Source of the DNA: Gemmatimonadota bacterium
Lineage (GTDB): Bacteria; Latescibacterota; UBA2968; UBA8231
Assembly: GCA_002712305.1 (NCBI GenBank)
Contig: PATE01000042.1
Coordinates: 1-8,019 of the forward strand
DNA length: 8,019 nt
Direction of reading: 5' to 3'
Every line of letters starts with the position of its first letter. The first letter of the stretch is position 1. Of the stretch, positions 1 through 8,019 are shown in pieces. The translations under genes were made by a program, and so were the position numbers. The notes under the pieces were generated by a model, which had not been told where the DNA came from, did not search any database, and worked only from the letters and a program-made list of their open reading frames with translations.

Positions 1-208
1 TAGATCGCATCCTCTTTTCGAGTGCTTTGACGACGGTCTTTTCGGTTTCTACAAGGGCATCGCCCATTGAGAAAACCTCTCCGCCGCCTGCACGCTGGTA
101 GGCGCCGAAACGGTTTGTGGACCGGATGCGGGTTTGCATCAGGTCGTTGAGTTCACGGGCCTGCAAACGCAGCATCGTGTAGTCGGTGTGGATTGTGTCG
201 ATGTTCAT
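1..208 (-). CDS. Hypothetical phage protein, 3' end outside the window
   Basis: The first 69 residues are present; the gene continues past the left edge. ATG at 206-208 is preceded by a purine-rich AAGAAAG stretch that can serve as a weak ribosome binding site. The visible part is charged and probably helical, beginning MNIDTIHTDYTMLRLQAREL, with a middle segment rich in R, T and N, then a Gly-Gly-Gly turn and a second helix that reaches ALEKRMRS at the edge. From memory it resembles a family of small actinophage proteins found downstream of the 162-aa and cysteine-motif proteins seen here, but I cannot confirm this. It is the last leftward gene, separated from its upstream neighbour by the stem-loop array at 241-568. 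No function is assigned. It lacks the 60-codon ORF context needed to judge its full length. Confidence 0.75.
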   Translation of the reverse strand, partial: MNIDTIHTDYTMLRLQARELNDLMQTRIRSTNRFGAYQRAGGGEVFSMGDALVETEKTVVKALEKRMRS

Positions 209-240: not shown

Positions 241-568
241 CATGCATGGGTAACGGGAATAGAAGGTGTCCGGCGTGCCGTATCAGGGTATCGATGGGAA
301 AGCGGCCGGACAGAAAACACCCGGTGACTGTTCAATGGGTAACGAGCCTTTGCTGGCCGGGTGAGAAACAGGGGGCGAAACCAGTACGGGCACCGAGGCG
401 TTCCAGCCCCCTAGAAAGACCCGGCGAGTGGGACTTGGGTATCGTGACATCCATAGCCGGGGTAGAAACAGGGGGGCGCTTTCGCTCTGGGTAACGGCCC
501 CGAATTCGGCCCCCCTAGAAAGCACCCGGCGCTGCGCTTGTGGGTGACGAACGGACCTCGGCCGGGTG
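241..568 (-). repeat. Tandem array of about seven stem-loops, 51-bp period
   Basis: This is non-coding DNA between two leftward genes. The core GGGTAACGA-like 9-mer recurs at 248, 286, 337, 388, 437, 489 and 542, at intervals of 38, 51, 51, 49, 52 and 53. From the second unit on, each core sits in the middle of a ~30-nt loop closed by a perfect or near-perfect stem: 268-274/305-311, 318-324/357-363, 371-376/406-411, 419-425/456-463, 471-477/509-515, 523-530/561-568. Stem sequences differ between units but stay complementary (GTCCGGC, CACCCGG, GGGGGC, ACCCGGC, GGGGGGC, CACCCGGC with their partners). Stems are joined by short AGAAACA or TAGAAAG linkers. G-type and C-type left arms alternate from unit 318 on. 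Covariation-like arm changes favour a structured RNA, probably made with the leftward operon. Strand is inferred from the neighbours. Confidence 0.8.
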
Positions 569-575
569 AGAACTT

Positions 576-755
576 TTAGAAGCCGTCGGTGTACCGGTAG
601 GGACGCTTGTTCAACGGTGTCGCCTCCCAACACTTGGAGCAGATGGCGTATTGGTTGTACACGGACAGGACGACAGTGCAGTCGTCCCGCCCGCATACAC
701 GGCCCTTAATCTGCGCCTTCTTCTTGGGCTTCGCCCGGTACTGCGACGCGGTCAC
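576..755 (-). CDS. Small four-cysteine (zinc-knuckle-like) protein
   Basis: This is a 59-aa basic protein from a GTG at 753-755 whose GTGA overlaps the upstream TGA stop, a common coupling geometry. A TTG at 768-770 would give 64 aa; neither start has a good Shine-Dalgarno. A lysine-rich N-terminal stretch (KPKKKAQIKGR) is followed by C-x4-C-T-V-V-L-S-V-Y-N-x5-C-x2-C, with cysteines at about 21, 26, 39 and 42. The four cysteines could bind one zinc ion, and the basic tail could contact nucleic acid; both are inferences. The same D-[DE]-C-T-x-V-L-S-x-Y-N block occurs in the product of 2977-3312. Short proteins with this type of motif are, as I recall, common and uncharacterised in actinophages. 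It is translationally coupled to the 162-aa gene. The stem-loop array starts 8 bases after its stop codon. Confidence 0.75.
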   Translation of the reverse strand: MTASQYRAKPKKKAQIKGRVCGRDDCTVVLSVYNQYAICSKCWEATPLNKRPYRYTDGF

Positions 756-1240
756 AGGTTGTTCAGGCAATCAACGCCGCTCAAGTTGATGGCGCGGATG
801 GCTTCCGTGTGGAAGTCGACACGGTCCTGTATGGCGTCAACCATCCCTACGTACCGGTTGACCATCGACTGGTGCTGTGCGACGGTCATCTCGCCTACGC
901 GGATGAAGACACCGTTGATCTTGAATGTGTCGGCTAGGACGGCTGCGTCCAACAGGCCGGGGAACCGGATCTCTTCGTTAACCCCGTCAGAGGTCGGGAA
1001 AGAGGTAGGTCCGCCGAATCCGTCGACACGCTCTGAGGCTGCCTTACGGATCTTGCGGGTGTAGTCAGCGTGCCGGTTGTTGACCCAGTTCTGGACAGCA
1101 GGCACGAGGAACATGACGAGCGCTTCTGCGTCGCCGCTCTCTACGCCTTTGCGGATGAAGTCAGCGACGCAATCTGCGACATCGCTGCGATCAGTGGTGA
1201 CTTCGAGTTGCTCGTCGATCATCTGGGTGATGGTACTCAT
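752..1240 (-). CDS. Hypothetical 162-aa phage protein
   Basis: The start is ATG 1238-1240; upstream lies GAAAGACCTCC, only a weak ribosome binding site. The protein begins MSTITQMIDEQLEVTTDRSD and is mainly helical and acidic at the N-terminus. A middle section has RKIRKAASERVDGFGGPTSF, and a C-terminal block has VGEMTVAQHQSMVNRYV. I recall a widespread actinophage family with an N-terminal segment of this kind and a D-M-T-x-A-x-H-like motif near the C-terminus, function unknown; the match is from memory only. The gene is first after the promoter at 1291-1319 and overlaps the next gene by 4 nt, so the two are probably co-translated. Nothing in the sequence shows a catalytic site or a membrane segment. 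Confidence 0.8.
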   Translation of the reverse strand: MSTITQMIDEQLEVTTDRSDVADCVADFIRKGVESGDAEALVMFLVPAVQNWVNNRHADYTRKIRKAASERVDGFGGPTSFPTSDGVNEEIRFPGLLDAAVLADTFKINGVFIRVGEMTVAQHQSMVNRYVGMVDAIQDRVDFHTEAIRAINLSGVDCLNNL

Positions 1241-1605: not shown

Positions 1606-1782
1606 TCACGTGCAACTCTCGCACGATTCGGGGTTCTCCAGATCGCATGACGCAACTATCTCTTCGTCGTCGTCGAACGGGTCCCCCACAGGGGGAAGGT
1701 CGGGGTGTTCACCCATAGTGCTTTCTTCTTCCCACGGGTTCTCGTACAAGCGGACCCGTTCCGTCACCTCCGGCCATGCCAT
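1606..1782 (-). CDS. Small acidic three-cysteine protein (58 aa)
   Basis: The start codon shares its A with the endolysin stop codon (TGATG), and the TGA stop is one base upstream of the next ATG. This chain of couplings is the main evidence that it is real. The product begins MAWPEVTERVRLYENPWEEE, then has an acidic stretch (DPFDDDEE) and a tail with cysteines at 46, 53 and 56 (C-x6-C-x2-C), ending in CESCT. No transmembrane segment or signal peptide is seen. The family is not recognised. As part of the endolysin cluster it may act in or around lysis, but that is only inferred from position. Confidence 0.7.
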   Translation of the reverse strand: MAWPEVTERVRLYENPWEEESTMGEHPDLPPVGDPFDDDEEIVASCDLENPESCESCT

Positions 1783-2528
1783 CAGTCTTCAACCCCCCAC
1801 ATGCGATCCCATGTCTTGTGGCCGACAACACCGTCGACCTGTAGGCGCTCCACCCTCTGGAAGTTCCGCACAGCGTGGAGTGTCCGCCATCCGAACTTGC
1901 CGTCAGGGTTACCGACGTTGAAGTCCAGATCAGCGAGGCGGCGTTGCATCATCTCCACAGGGTCCCCGACCGACTTGCGACGCAAAGGCCGGATCTCTAA
2001 AGCCTCCCCAACCTTGTGGATCATCGCGACGATCGCGTTGAAGTCCGGCAGCACAGGCTCCACGGGAGGCGTAGGCGGAATCAGATACCCCTCATCCAGA
2101 GCCGGGGCAGGAAACCACTCCGTCGTGTACCGGGGCTGCATGTGCCAATTCTCGGAAGGGACCGTCTTCTTTATGCCGTAATCCTCCGCTATGTCGTGGA
2201 AAGTACCCCACTTCAAACCACCCGACAGGCGAACATCACACGCATATACCCATGAATCGATCTGTTGCATGTGCCAACTTCCCCTCCAAATACCAACCCC
2301 GTTCAACCCCTTAGGACCAAACCGCCGATCCGGGTTAGCAGCCAGATTCCCCCGACCATTCTTGTACTTCGTGTAGAGAGCCTTCTGCTGGTTATACGTC
2401 CGACCGCCAGACACAATCTTCACCTTCCCCCGTATGCGAGGATCAGCGAACAGGGCTTCAAGACGGCGAGTGAACTCAGGGTGAAACAGCGAACAGTCCA
2501 CCCACTTGGAAGTGGTCGGCAAAGGCAT
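1782..2528 (-). CDS. Endolysin: M15-type peptidase with C-terminal peptidoglycan-binding domain
   Basis: This 248-aa lysin is predicted to cut peptide bonds in host peptidoglycan. Residues about 1-135 look like a VanY/D-Ala-D-Ala carboxypeptidase (M15) fold. It has the arginine-containing SGGRTYNQQKALY motif (40-52), SWH with His86, then YACD with Asp98, and SENWH with His129. His86, Asp98 and His129 are the expected zinc ligands and Glu126 lies in the E-x-W-H motif. The His-to-Asp gap (12) is longer than in the textbook SxHxxGxAxD, a spacing I recall from other actinophage lysins. A proline-rich linker (about 151-158) leads to a PG_binding_1 domain (about 186-245: GDPVEMMQRRL, NPDGKFGWRT, VDGVVGHKTW). 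It has no signal peptide, so release needs a holin. Its Shine-Dalgarno is weak. It heads the overlapping leftward cluster 2528-1339. Confidence 0.92.
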   Translation of the reverse strand: MPLPTTSKWVDCSLFHPEFTRRLEALFADPRIRGKVKIVSGGRTYNQQKALYTKYKNGRGNLAANPDRRFGPKGLNGVGIWRGSWHMQQIDSWVYACDVRLSGGLKWGTFHDIAEDYGIKKTVPSENWHMQPRYTTEWFPAPALDEGYLIPPTPPVEPVLPDFNAIVAMIHKVGEALEIRPLRRKSVGDPVEMMQRRLADLDFNVGNPDGKFGWRTLHAVRNFQRVERLQVDGVVGHKTWDRMWGVED

Positions 2529-3399: not shown

Positions 3400-3507
3400 C
3401 CCGGCTTCCGGGCTGTGGGCGTGTGAATCTGCTGTGTGAATCTGTGACATAGGTCACACTGGGCGCGCAGCGCCCGGTCTCCGGGCTTACTGGATAGGTG
3501 TCAATCT
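3400..3507. repeat. Intergenic module: CCCGG hairpin, GTGTGAATCT repeats, CRP-like site, GGGCGC hairpin
   Basis: The order is: hairpin CCCGG-CTT-CCGGG (3400-3412); GTGTGAATCT at 3421-3430 and 3434-3443; palindrome TGTGACATAGGTCACA (3443-3458), directly continuing the second repeat; hairpin GGGCGC-GCA-GCGCCC (3461-3475); and a degenerate GTGTCAATCT (3498-3507). The same order recurs at 4370-4475 and 7337-7470. It lies between the ends of two convergent genes. Confidence 0.75.
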
Positions 3508-3799: not shown

Positions 3800-3839
3800 G
3801 GTTCCTTCCTTCTGGAGGGGCGTTCCCTCCAACAACTAA

Positions 3840-3868
3840 AGCGTATAGGAAGCCCGTCCGTTTGTCTA
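3840..3868 (-). promoter_or_regulatory. Leftward promoter of the 3542-3799 gene
   Basis: On the minus strand: -35 TAGACA (3863-3868), 17-bp spacer with GGACGGG, -10 TACGCT (3840-3845). The predicted start near 3833 is about 3 nt before a leader hairpin (3814-3830). Confidence 0.75.
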
Positions 3869-4369: not shown

Positions 4370-4475
4370 CCCGGTTGTTCCGGGCCTCGTGCGTGTGAAT
4401 CTGCCGCGTGTGAATCTAGGCGTGTGAATCTCAGGGGCGCGGAGCGCCCGGGGCCCCCCCCTCGCGTGTGAATCT
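4370..4475. repeat. Intergenic module with four GTGTGAATCT copies
   Basis: Hairpin CCCGG-TTGTT-CCGGG (4370-4384); GTGTGAATCT at 4393-4402, 4408-4417 and 4422-4431 (15 and 14 bp steps); hairpin GGGCGC-GGA-GCGCCC (4435-4449); fourth copy 4466-4475, three bases from the end of the leftward gene. The layout is the same as 3400-3507 and 7337-7470. The GGGCGC hairpin may also end the leftward transcript. Confidence 0.8.
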
Positions 4476-4981: not shown

Positions 4982-5036
4982 GCATTCACCCCCTCTCGGT
5001 GGTTCGGTGTGGAGGGGCTCTCCCTCCGACAACCGC

Positions 5037-5065
5037 ATCGTATAGGAAGCCCGTCCTACCGTCAA
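5037..5065 (-). promoter_or_regulatory. Leftward promoter of the 4793-4981 gene
   Basis: On the minus strand: -35 TTGACG (5060-5065), 17-bp spacer with GGACGGG, -10 TACGAT (5037-5042). The predicted start is near 5030, 3 nt before the leader hairpin. Confidence 0.8.
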
Positions 5066-5075
5066 CTCCTAGTTG

Positions 5076-5793: not shown

Positions 5794-5822
5794 ACTATAT
5801 AGGAGGTCCGTCCGACTGTCAA
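5794..5822 (-). promoter_or_regulatory. Leftward promoter of the 5646-5756 gene
   Basis: On the minus strand: perfect -35 TTGACA (5817-5822), 17-bp spacer with GGACGGA, -10 TATAGT (5794-5799). It is the closest to consensus in the window. It has no CRP-like site upstream, so it may be constitutive. The stop codon of the upstream gene lies inside its -35. Confidence 0.85.
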
Positions 5823-5980
5823 CTCTTACGCCGGATTTCTCCAGAATAATCGATTGGGATCCGCCCGAGCCGTTCCGCCCGTGAGTCCCGCACGTCCTGA
5901 ATCAGGATGCGTATAGCGAGGCTGCACGACCAGAGGACCCCGACGATCAGGACCATTTGGACAATGCGAGTTGTTAGCAA
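5819..5980 (-). CDS. Small membrane-anchored protein with TTG start, behind an SOS box
   Basis: A 53-aa frame begins at TTG 5978-5980, four bases after GGAAGGAAACACC's purine core; an ATG at 5956 would be eight residues shorter and cut into the hydrophobic helix. Residues about 5-27 (RIVQMVLIVGVLWSCSLAIR) form one membrane segment. The rest is charged (QDVRDSRAERLGRIPIDYSG, then EIRRKS). The TGA stop overlaps the -35 box of the next promoter. It has no GGACGGG promoter; a full LexA-type palindrome at 6034-6049 is 54 bp upstream. DNA-damage induction is therefore likely. Function is unknown; a small SOS-induced membrane peptide could act in lysis, growth arrest or exclusion, but nothing decides between these. 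Confidence 0.68.
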   Translation of the reverse strand: MLTTRIVQMVLIVGVLWSCSLAIRILIQDVRDSRAERLGRIPIDYSGEIRRKS

Positions 5981-6348: not shown

Positions 6349-6388
6349 CGGTTCCTCTCTAGTGGGGGCGTCTCCCCCACTGACTGAA

Positions 6389-6417
6389 ACTATACCGGCA
6401 TCCCGTCCGTTTGTCCA
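6389..6417 (-). promoter_or_regulatory. Leftward promoter of the 6094-6348 gene
   Basis: On the minus strand: -35 TGGACA (6412-6417), 17-bp spacer with GGACGGG, -10 TATAGT (6389-6394). The predicted start near 6382 is one base before the leader hairpin. Confidence 0.82.
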
Positions 6418-6668: not shown

Positions 6669-6723
6669 ATTCACCTCCTCCCCCTTTCCGGGGGTCGGTC
6701 CTTCTCCGTCCCCACTGATTGAA

Positions 6724-6752
6724 ACTATATCGGGATCTCGTCCGTTTGTCCA
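6724..6752 (-). promoter_or_regulatory. Leftward promoter of the 6513-6668 gene
   Basis: On the minus strand: -35 TGGACA (6747-6752), 17-bp spacer with GGACGAG, -10 TATAGT (6724-6729). Confidence 0.82.
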
Positions 6753-6760
6753 CTCCTAGA

Positions 6761-6788
6761 GGAACATTCCGATGTGTCATATGTCACG
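6761..6788. promoter_or_regulatory. GGAA-N2-TTCC box and CRP-like palindrome
   Basis: GGAACATTCC (6761-6770, perfect) and TGTGTCATATGTCACG (6773-6788, two mismatches to the copy at 3889). The site sits between divergent promoters. Confidence 0.72.
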
Positions 6789-6799
6789 TCCGTTTGAGG

Positions 6800-6828
6800 T
6801 TGACGATTGGACGGGATTCCTATAGATT
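6800..6828 (+). promoter_or_regulatory. Rightward promoter of the 6872-7258 gene
   Basis: -35 TTGACG (6800-6805), 17-bp spacer with GGACGGG, -10 TAGATT (6823-6828). A short GGGG-ATGG-CCCC hairpin (6842-6853) follows in the leader. Confidence 0.82.
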
Positions 6829-6871
6829 GATCCATGTCGAAGGGGATGGCCCCCAACGACAGGAAGGACCT

Positions 6872-7258
6872 ATGAGCATTACCGTCCAGCCCAACCCGAA
6901 GGGGACCTTCGGAGCCGTACTGGCTTCGTGGGTGGCGCTTCTGACGGTGGCCGTGAAGGGCACCGATCGTGAGCGCTTCGAGGCTGATGGCCTCGCCTAC
7001 CCGTGGGAAGGCAAGTTCTACACCGGCTTCAAATGCCCCTACGGCATTGTGAAGGTCCGCCGACAGGCGGGCAACCTCTGGAGGGTGTCAATCCTCTGGC
7101 CCGCTGGTCGGGGTGGCATCGCCACTGGGAACCACGATGTGGAGCGTATCTTCGTCTTTAGTTGCGACGAGGACCTGCCCGCCTACTTGGACACTCTTCG
7201 GAGCGATCCGAAGAACCCTCCGAGTCTGGAGGTGGTGCCGCACGGCGAGGCGGTCTAA
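6872..7258 (+). CDS. Hypothetical protein (128 aa), paralogue of the 7564-7950 product
   Basis: ATG 6872 follows AGGAAGGA; the longer frame from 6719 runs through the promoter and is rejected. The product begins MSITVQPNPKGTFGAVLASW. Its most conserved parts, judged against the paralogue, are DGLAYPW (39-45), PYGxxxVRRQxGNxWR (56-71), WPAGRGGIA (76-84), ERIFVF (91-96) and VPHG near the end. By hand count about 75 of 128 aligned positions are identical without gaps. The pattern of aromatic and glycine residues suggests a compact mixed fold; no catalytic signature or membrane segment is seen, and no family is recognised. It is the rightward gene of a divergent pair, ended by a UUCG hairpin, and convergent with its own paralogue. 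Confidence 0.87.
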   Translation: MSITVQPNPKGTFGAVLASWVALLTVAVKGTDRERFEADGLAYPWEGKFYTGFKCPYGIVKVRRQAGNLWRVSILWPAGRGGIATGNHDVERIFVFSCDEDLPAYLDTLRSDPKNPPSLEVVPHGEAV

Positions 7259-7336: not shown

Positions 7337-7525
7337 CCCGGTAGTTCCGGGCTATTGGCGTGTGTGAATCTGGCGTGTGAATCTGCACTGGGCGCGGAGC
7401 GCCCGGGTGACTGGGTAGGTGTGAATCTTGGGCCCGGTAGGGCCCGGGGTGACTGGGTAGGTGTGAATCTCGGCCCCGGGGGGCCGGGGCCGCGTGTGAC
7501 ACATGACCACGTGTGACAGATGACC
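7337..7525. repeat. Largest hairpin/GTGTGAATCT module
   Basis: CCCGG-TAGTT-CCGGG (7337-7351); GTGTGAATCT at 7362-7371, 7375-7384, 7419-7428 and 7461-7470; GGGCGC-GGA-GCGCCC (7390-7404) after the second copy. The last two copies are in a duplicated context (GTGACTGGGTAG before each). A 9-bp-stem hairpin (7471-7479/7484-7492) and two direct repeats GTGTGACA-N-ATGACC (7494-7508, 7511-7525) complete this gene-free stretch of about 300 bp between convergent genes. Confidence 0.8.
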
Positions 7526-7563: not shown

Positions 7564-7950
7564 TCAGATGGCGTCCCCGTGAGGGACGATCTCCAGCGGC
7601 TGGGGATTCTGGGGATCGGCGCACAGGGCGTCCAGCGCCCCGTACAGGTCCACGTCCGTGGCGAACACGAAGATTCGTTCGCTGTCCGTGGTCCCGTCGG
7701 CGATCCCGCCGCGTCCCGCGGGCCACGTCTGCGAGATGCGCCAGACGTTGCCGTGCTGTCGGCGGACCCGGAGGACACCATAGGGACGCTTGATCCCTGT
7801 GAACGTCTTCCCCGTCCATGGGTAGGCGAGACCGTCGGACTCACGGCGCTCGCTGGTGTGGTTCTTGCAGGCCTTGGCGACCTGATCGATCCACGATGCT
7901 AGGACAGCGGCCCTAGTCTTTTTCCCGTTAGGGAGGATGGTTACGCTGAT
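7564..7950 (-). CDS. Paralogue of the 6872-7258 product; ATC at the start-codon position
   Basis: An uninterrupted 128-codon frame aligns end to end, without gaps, with the product of 6872-7258. Shared blocks are AVLASW, DGLAYPW, PYGVLRVRRQHGNVWR, WPAGRGGIA, ERIFVF and VPHG. Both genes have exactly 129 codons with the stop. At the position of the paralogue's ATG this gene has ATC (7948-7950), with AAGGAG six bases upstream. No ATG, GTG or TTG occurs in frame before the conserved core, or upstream back to the promoter. Either AUC is used as a rare initiator, or a G-to-C change (or base-call error) removed the start and the gene is freshly inactivated. The intact frame, promoter (7990-8018) and terminator favour a working gene. 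Function is unknown. Confidence 0.78.
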   Translation of the reverse strand: MSVTILPNGKKTRAAVLASWIDQVAKACKNHTSERRESDGLAYPWTGKTFTGIKRPYGVLRVRRQHGNVWRISQTWPAGRGGIADGTTDSERIFVFATDVDLYGALDALCADPQNPQPLEIVPHGDAI

Positions 7951-7989
7951 GTGATTCTCCTTGCTGTCGTTGTCTTGCTGATATGAGGA

Positions 7990-8018
7990 ACGATATAGGC
8001 ATCCCGTCCGACTTCCAC
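7990..8018 (-). promoter_or_regulatory. Leftward promoter of the 7564-7950 gene
   Basis: On the minus strand: -10 TATCGT (7990-7995), spacer with GGACGGG. The -35 is poor: GTGGAA with a 17-bp spacer, or TGGAAG with 16. The upstream operator region is outside the window. Unlike the others, its leader has no hairpin. Confidence 0.65.
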
Positions 8019-8019
8019 C

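What the first reader, a model, noticed from the sequence alone, without database searches (positions are those of the whole stretch)
241..568. Tandem stem-loop array with covarying stems and a conserved loop core
Seven units of about 51 bp share a GGGTAACGA-like core in the loop. Six have stems whose arms differ from unit to unit yet remain complementary, joined by AGAAACA/TAGAAAG linkers. Selection seems to act on RNA (or cruciform) structure and on the loop core, not on protein. It is not a CRISPR: the repeated element is the loop centre, and the stems vary. It could be a multi-site RNA decoy, a protein-binding array, or a processed chain of small RNAs from the leftward operon. I know no described phage element with this layout.
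Basis: seen in the sequence. Interest (0 to 1): 0.87.

Follow-up and report, generated by a model that had tools for sequence, protein, structure and literature searches.

The report
Phage guide-RNA array (TIGR stem-loop type)
The hairpin array is a small phage bank of paired guide RNAs that sits in front of the broken-off start of a TIGR-associated (Tas) protein gene; it is a new example of an RNA-guided DNA-targeting system described in 2025, not an unknown kind of element.

Summary
At 267-568, minus strand, six tandem hairpins have different but complementary stems and a conserved loop centre. The seventh 'unit' (241-264) is only a core-like octamer without a stem. That is the layout of the stem-loop TIGR arrays of Faure et al. 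2025 (PMC12045711): two spacers framed by box C/D motifs in a loop closed by variable palindromes.

The next gene in the same direction (2-205, minus, cut by the contig end) is the N-terminus of a Tas protein. The evidence is NCBIfam TIGR_Tas at E 0.009, a profile from 50 relatives (best of 176 frames), and tblastn hits that all fall on one phage Tas family. A covariance model built only from other phages' units ranks the six units as the top six hits, all on the minus strand. Homologous loci in 76 mycobacteriophages and 50 IMG/VR contigs carry such arrays on the tas strand (236 units against 15). In mycobacteriophages stems and boxes stay fixed while spacers are hypervariable.

I found no target. 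It is a new member of a known kind.

The parts
267..568 (-). stem-loop TIGR-type array: six tandem guide units, read leftward, directly upstream of tas
   Evidence: Covariance model R1 built from other phages' units: the top six hits in the window are these units, all on the minus strand; stem statistics
523..568 (-). unit 1 in reading order: stem CACCCGGC/GCCGGGTG; spacer A 550-558 AGGTCCGTT; loop CGTCACCC 542-549; spacer B 532-540 CAAGCGCAG
   Evidence: 34.4 bits, E 8e-6
470..516 (-). unit 2: stem AGGGGGGC/GCCCCCCT; spacer A AATTCGGGGC (10 nt), loop CGTTACCC 489-496, spacer B 479-487 GAGCGAAAG
   Evidence: 23.1 bits, E 0.0019
419..463 (-). unit 3: stem CCCGGC/GCCGGG; spacer A 445-453 TGGATGTCA, loop CGATACCC 437-444, spacer B 427-435 AGTCCCACT
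   Evidence: 23.3 bits, E 0.0017
369..413 (-). unit 4: stem AGGGGGC/GCCCCCT; spacer A 396-403 GAACGCCT (8 nt), loop CGGTGCCC 388-395, spacer B 378-386 TACTGGTTT
   Evidence: 12.8 bits, E 0.26, weakest unit but still ranked sixth; 7-bp stem
318..363 (-). unit 5: stem CACCCGG/CCGGGTG; spacer A 345-353 GCAAAGGCT, loop CGTTACCC 337-344, spacer B 327-335 TTGAACAGT; box D is CA, not CG
   Evidence: 29.3 bits, E 1e-4
267..312 (-). unit 6: stem TGTCCGGC/GCCGGACA; spacer A 294-302 CTTTCCCAT, loop CGATACCC 286-293, spacer B 276-284 GATACGGCA
   Evidence: 21.8 bits, E 0.0034
241..264 (-). core-like octamer CGTTACCC (248-255) without stem; a decayed or truncated unit, or chance
   Evidence: no stem, no match to the model
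2..205 (-). 5' part of the tas gene (68 aa; ATG just upstream of the array-proximal polypurine stretch; the open frame also runs to an earlier ATG at 247), cut by the contig end just before the Nop-type RNA-binding domain
   Evidence: NCBIfam NF052498 TIGR_Tas E 0.0093; best of 176 window frames with a Tas profile, 11.2 bits against at most 4.6 for shuffled controls; tblastn hits in one phage Tas family; alignment
576..770 (-). small ORF (64 aa) upstream of the array in the same leftward gene run; weak PHROG 10853 match
752..1240 (-). ORF of 162 aa, same run, no known family
1782..2528 (-). endolysin-like gene (VanY-like peptidase part plus PG_binding_1), the phage hallmark of the contig

Best explanation
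The array is a stem-loop TIGR array: a tandem bank of six dual-spacer guide RNAs for the Tas protein encoded just downstream, of which only the N-terminus is on this contig. Model: the leftward transcript folds into hairpins of about 46 nt, which are cut apart in the pyrimidine-rich linkers (CTTTCTA / TGTTTCT). A Tas dimer grips each hairpin at two equivalent places: box C/D at the base of the loop (C(C/T)...CG at the stem) and the box D/C pair in the loop centre (CG-NNN-CCC). Two spacers of about 9 nt are left free. Spacer A pairs with one strand and spacer B with the other strand of adjacent halves of a DNA target of about 18 bp (predicted target 5'-A-revcomp(B)-3'). Relatives have no nuclease domain (TasA type), so the likely outcome is binding, unwinding and bending of target DNA that blocks or regulates it, probably in a competing mobile element or the host, rather than cutting. 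Shown here: layout, strand, six independent model hits, an adjacent Tas-family N-terminus, conservation of layout with hypervariable spacers in relatives. Inferred from the literature: processing, RNP assembly, DNA pairing. Unknown: the target and the benefit to the phage.
For: Stems at fixed distance from the cores. The adjacent truncated ORF matches TIGR_Tas and the phage Tas family, whose full members score E 1e-55 to 1e-69. An independent covariance model finds exactly these six units first, on the minus strand, and finds nothing at E < 0.4 in tas-less phages Bxb1, TM4 and Che8. 50 relatives: 236 units on the tas strand against 15 on the opposite strand, mostly within 700 nt upstream of tas, spacing mostly 54-66 nt. 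13 mycobacteriophage arrays: stems, CCA, CG and CCCA conserved, 9-nt spacers hypervariable. Tas relatives fold like TasR and TasH (Foldseek E 5e-9 and 7e-7; sequence E 4e-28 and 2e-14). Published description of stem-loop TIGR arrays with 8-12 nt spacers, box C/D, variable palindromes and processing at linkers.
Against: The Tas gene in the window is truncated, so the Nop domain itself is not seen and the family match of the fragment is weak by itself (E 0.009). Box C of the window units is looser than in relatives (CCG, CTA, CTG as well as CCA), and unit 5 has CA for CG. No target was found for the spacers. No expression data.
Confidence: 0.93

Rival explanations
1. A multi-site RNA decoy or sponge: the hairpin loops titrate a protein or small RNA through the conserved core.
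For: Conserved core in each loop, structured RNA, tandem copies.
Against: A decoy has no reason to keep two hypervariable 9-nt segments of fixed length beside the core, nor to sit beside a Tas gene in dozens of phages. The layout is that of an established guide array.
Confidence: 0.03
2. A DNA-level array of protein-binding sites (operators, iterons or cruciforms) in which the octamer is the binding site.
For: Octamer repeated about every 51 bp; inverted repeats.
Against: Strand-specific asymmetric grammar: in relatives 236 units on the tas strand against 15 on the other. Compensatory stem changes (selected set). Units also occur inside tas ORFs in relatives.
Confidence: 0.02
3. A stem-loop guide array that no longer works in this phage: a decaying TIGR locus with a broken tas. 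(A sub-case of the best explanation, not exclusive with it.)
For: One of seven cores has no stem; unit 4 is a weak match; box motifs deviate from the consensus. The tas end lies at the contig end, so intactness is unknown.
Against: The open frame reads to the very last bases with family-typical residues; five of six units match well.
Confidence: 0.12
4. A CRISPR array or another spacer array with long identical repeats.
For: Tandem units with variable segments.
Against: No exact repeat longer than about 13 nt is shared between units; the constant parts are 2-8 nt; no cas genes among the window proteins tested.
Confidence: 0.005

Closest known systems
Stem-loop TIGR arrays with TasA (Faure et al. 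2025, PMC12045711, Fig. 7; Peromyscus gut contig)
   Same: Tandem hairpins; two 8-12 nt spacers framed by box C/D-like motifs; variable palindromic stems in place of edge repeats; loop segment of conserved length and sequence; linkers between units; beside a Tas gene; mobile-element context
   Different: Box D is CG (UG in TasR) and box C is C(C/T) plus mostly A or G; six units in one array directly upstream of tas; tas cut by the contig end
Cluster A1 mycobacteriophage loci (e.g. Anglerfish gp71, BPBiebs31 gp74; annotated 'transposase' or 'hypothetical protein')
   Same: Array directly upstream of a TasA-like gene of about 236 aa; same unit grammar CCA-N9-CG-...-CCCA-N9-CG
   Different: Five units with longer stems; no nucleotide similarity to the window; 'CCA' box C conserved
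Dual-repeat TIGR arrays (TasR, TasH)
   Same: 9-nt paired spacers, box C/D logic
   Different: Those have constant edge and loop repeats and 36-nt tigRNAs; here the edge is a variable stem and units are about 46 nt plus linker
IS110/IS621 bridge RNA
   Same: Nop-fold protein family, box C/D-like framing of guides, stem-closed loops
   Different: Single two-loop RNA of a transposase with a DEDD domain; here a tandem array, and relatives lack that domain
Archaeal box C/D snoRNA
   Same: Two guide segments framed by C/D and D'/C'
   Different: No RUGAUGA/CUGA or k-turn; directs RNA methylation

Membership tests
Stem-loop TIGR array | Tandem hairpin units, several copies | tested here: met
   six units
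Stem-loop TIGR array | Variable but consistently palindromic stems in the edge position | tested here: met
   6-8 bp stems that differ from unit to unit; 46 bp in all against a shuffle maximum of 32
[quoted passage not shown]
   C(C/T)-N9/10-CG-NNN-CCC-N9/10-CG in the units; one unit has CA for CG and one spacer A is 8 nt
Stem-loop TIGR array | Adjacent gene for a Tas protein | tested here: met
   truncated ORF 2-205: NF052498 E 0.0093, best of 176 frames, hits in the phage Tas family
Stem-loop TIGR array | Nop domain in the Tas protein | tested here: inconclusive
   the window gene ends before that domain; relatives have it by sequence and fold
Stem-loop TIGR array | Processed into single hairpin units bound by Tas | not testable with these tools
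   needs small-RNA sequencing or pull-down
Stem-loop TIGR array | Tandem-spacer DNA targeting | tested here: inconclusive
   no target found; real spacer pairs match no better than shuffled pairs
CRISPR array | Near-identical repeats of 20-50 nt | tested here: not met
   longest shared exact piece about 13 nt
Box C/D snoRNA | Box C RUGAUGA, box D CUGA with k-turn | tested here: not met
   sequence read directly: motifs are CC/CT and CG
IS110 bridge RNA | Single two-loop RNA beside a DEDD transposase | tested here: not met
   tandem array; relatives of about 240 aa match NF033542 only weakly (E 4e-8 for the Microcystis phage protein, otherwise E 0.02 or weaker, or no match) and far below its cut-off

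The most novel reading that the evidence does not exclude
The window belongs to a large actinophage lineage of TasA systems whose guide cassettes are compact 46-nt hairpins with a fixed grammar (stem-CCA-N9-CG-NNN-CCCA-N9-CG-stem), are swapped and diversified quickly between near-identical phages, and in many relatives are inserted in frame within the tas coding sequence itself, so that one stretch is both guide RNA and protein. Cultured cluster A1 mycobacteriophages would then allow natural TIGR targets and spacer turnover to be studied genetically.
Probability: 0.45. Interest if true: 0.7.

Novelty: new member of a known kind. Interest (0 to 1): 0.5.

Why it matters
TIGR-Tas systems are recent, and their natural targets, spacer origin and biological role are unknown. 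Recognising this element, and the same one in 76 sequenced mycobacteriophages most of which grow on a laboratory strain, puts the stem-loop type into a tractable phage-host pair and supplies a tested covariance grammar for finding more. For the window itself, it turns an apparently unexplained hairpin array into a named system.

Tried and rejected
1) Rfam scan of the window: no convincing family. 2) Nop family Pfam PF01798 in the whole genome: none; Pfam also misses bona fide phage Tas proteins, so this is not evidence against. 3) Pattern of three exact GGGTAACG octamers 36-62 nt apart in viral and genome collections: scattered hits in unrelated genomes, not followed up, because the core alone is not diagnostic. 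4) DNA similarity to known phages: none. 5) Targets: A+revcomp(B) 18-mers against 50,697 phage records. The first two queries were too long to detect an exact 18-mer; shorter ones gave only chance-level matches. The best mycobacteriophage match, in TM4 gp17, is 16 of 18 for one Buttons/Froghopper spacer pair. In four phage genomes real pairs do no better than shuffled pairs or reversed order. Five of the six window pairs against their own genome with up to 2 mismatches: one chance-level hit. 6) Tas family in 25 genomes of the same order: none; the rest of tas is not elsewhere in the assembly. 7) Promoter/terminator scan near the array: nothing above chance. 8) Covariation statistics on A3 are inflated, because units were picked for complementarity; the strand asymmetry and the window search are the unbiased tests.

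Full report
WHAT WAS CHECKED. The window is one whole contig (C63, 8019 bp) of a metagenome-type assembly. It carries an endolysin-like gene and many small ORFs and looks like a phage or prophage fragment, although it has no close DNA relative among 50,697 phage records. The described array is real. Six cores between 286 and 549 are flanked at 10-12 nt by arms of 6-8 bp that differ from unit to unit yet pair. In total 46 bp pair, against a mean of 22.6 (sd 2.6, maximum 32) in 2000 shuffles with fixed cores. The seventh core, at 248, has no stem.

ANATOMY. Read on the minus strand, each unit is: stem (6-8 bp), C(C/T), usually A or G, 9-10 variable nt, CG, three nt, CCC, usually A, 9 variable nt, CG, stem. 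Example 568-523: CACCCGGC-C-G-AGGTCCGTT-CG-TCA-CCC-A-CAAGCGCAG-C-GCCGGGTG. Linkers are CTTTCTA or TGTTTCT.

THE NEIGHBOUR. The next gene in the same direction starts at about 205 and runs off the contig at position 2. Its 68 residues match NCBIfam NF052498 'TIGR-Tas system RNA-guided endonuclease' from profile position 1 (E 0.0093). tblastn against phages gives 75 weak hits, of which 74 are in mycobacteriophages (the listed ones all on one gene family) and one is in an Arthrobacter phage gene. Full members of that family, the Arthrobacter one included, score E 1e-55 to 1e-69 against NF052498. A profile from 50 viral relatives picks this frame as the best of 176 in the window (11.2 bits, E 0.0018; 1000 shuffled versions reach at most 4.6 bits). 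The alignment shows the family's TLRL.A...DDL..(T/V)RI...NR and EK..VK.LEK.MR.

HOMOLOGOUS ARRAYS. In cluster A1 mycobacteriophages the tas-like gene (about 236 aa, annotated 'transposase', 'HTH' or 'hypothetical') has a non-coding stretch of about 335 nt directly upstream, with five hairpins of the same grammar. In 13 aligned phages the stems, CCA, CG and CCCA are conserved while the 9-nt segments are hypervariable, and whole cassettes are shared between otherwise different arrays. This is what guides predict, and neither a coding sequence nor a binding-site array does. A profile-guided search found 50 tas loci in IMG/VR (some are the same mycobacteriophages). A simple scan with the grammar gives 236 units on the tas strand and 15 on the other strand, 164 of them within 700 nt upstream of tas, with spacers of 9 nt after CCA in the great majority.

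INDEPENDENT TEST OF THE WINDOW. A covariance model was built from 50 units of other loci only (A3/R1). With filters off, the six best hits in the window are the six units, all on the minus strand, 34.4 to 12.8 bits; five have E below 0.004. The next hit has 12.2 bits, so the weakest unit is supported by its place in the array rather than by its score. Phages without tas (Bxb1, TM4, Che8) give nothing below E 0.4. In loci outside the training set all hits at E <= 0.05 lie on the tas strand.

PROTEIN FAMILY. A relative (L159, 242 aa) is predicted with mean pLDDT 93. Its closest solved structures are TIGR-TasR (9mty, Foldseek E 5e-9), TasH complexes, then IS621/IS110 recombinases; by profile, TasR E 4e-28 and TasH E 2e-14. 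These relatives match only the part of TasR/TasH behind the nuclease domains and are therefore TasA-like. For the window protein this is inference, because it is cut.

MECHANISM. From the published work: stem-loop arrays are transcribed, cut in linkers and bound by Tas; in TasR and TasH two short spacers pair with opposite strands of adjacent DNA. From the reported 8-nt 3' overhangs and the 'C-5' rule I derive the target order 5'-A-revcomp(B)-3' (my inference). For the window I expect DNA binding and bending without cutting. I tested targets as far as possible and found none.

COMPARISON. All sequence-level features of stem-loop TIGR arrays that could be tested are met. The Nop domain of this particular protein, RNA processing and DNA targeting could not be shown. 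CRISPR, box C/D snoRNA and IS110 bridge RNA each fail a defining feature. Hence: new member of a known kind, with high confidence in identity and low knowledge of target.

BEYOND THE WINDOW. In 21 of the 50 viral loci one to three units lie inside the tas reading frame, most of them at one site between ...YCGxHV and RxRGQxANW, where the protein carries an in-frame insertion with DTQ/DTH-like repeats. Units of this kind in loci outside the training set are found by the independent model. I did not find this in the main text of the TIGR-Tas paper; its supplement could not be read.

Noticed in passing
L162, L166, L167, L171, L174, L175, L187-L189, L194, L196-L198, L200-L202, L205, L206, L208 (about 350-530 nt into tas); L148 2888-2997: One to three guide units lie inside the tas ORF, in frame, mostly at one site of the Nop-type domain, so the guide cassette is also translated as an insertion. 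L164, L171, L194 and L199 have units near the 3' end of the ORF.
   Followed up: partly
L141, L143-L146, L151-L158 (cluster A1 mycobacteriophages): Tas genes annotated as transposase, HTH DNA binding domain protein or hypothetical protein sit downstream of an unannotated five-hairpin array whose spacers are hypervariable between near-identical phages; Bxb1 lacks the gene.
   Followed up: yes
L147 2276-2500 (Mycobacterium phage Rich gp50), L148 2060-2500 (Gordonia phage Spooky gp50): The annotated N-terminal extensions of these proteins overlap guide arrays (model hits inside); the gene starts are probably called too far upstream.
   Followed up: partly
L142 1930-2510 (Arthrobacter phage Talia1610): A run of hairpins upstream of tas gene 255 with ATACCC/TAACCC-like loop cores and lower GC, seemingly a diverged form of the array.
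   Followed up: no
window 3420-3450, 4391-4470, 7360-7480: Recurrent GTGTGAATCT motifs in short tandem runs in non-coding stretches (TRF rows); function unknown.
   Followed up: no
window 3830-3862, 5035-5067, 5795-5825, 6385-6415, 6720-6755, 7995-8015: A repeated promoter-like block (TTGACAAACGGACGGGCTTCCTATA-like, read on the minus strand) before several small ORFs.
   Followed up: no
window 6719-7258 (+) and 7564-8019 (-): Two divergent copies of one unknown protein (shared DGLAYPW.GK..TG.K.PYG...VRRQ.GN.WR.S..WPAGRGGIA).
   Followed up: no
window position 1: The contig ends inside tas and the rest of the gene is not elsewhere in the assembly; the phage contig may have been binned with an unrelated bacterium.
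   Followed up: partly
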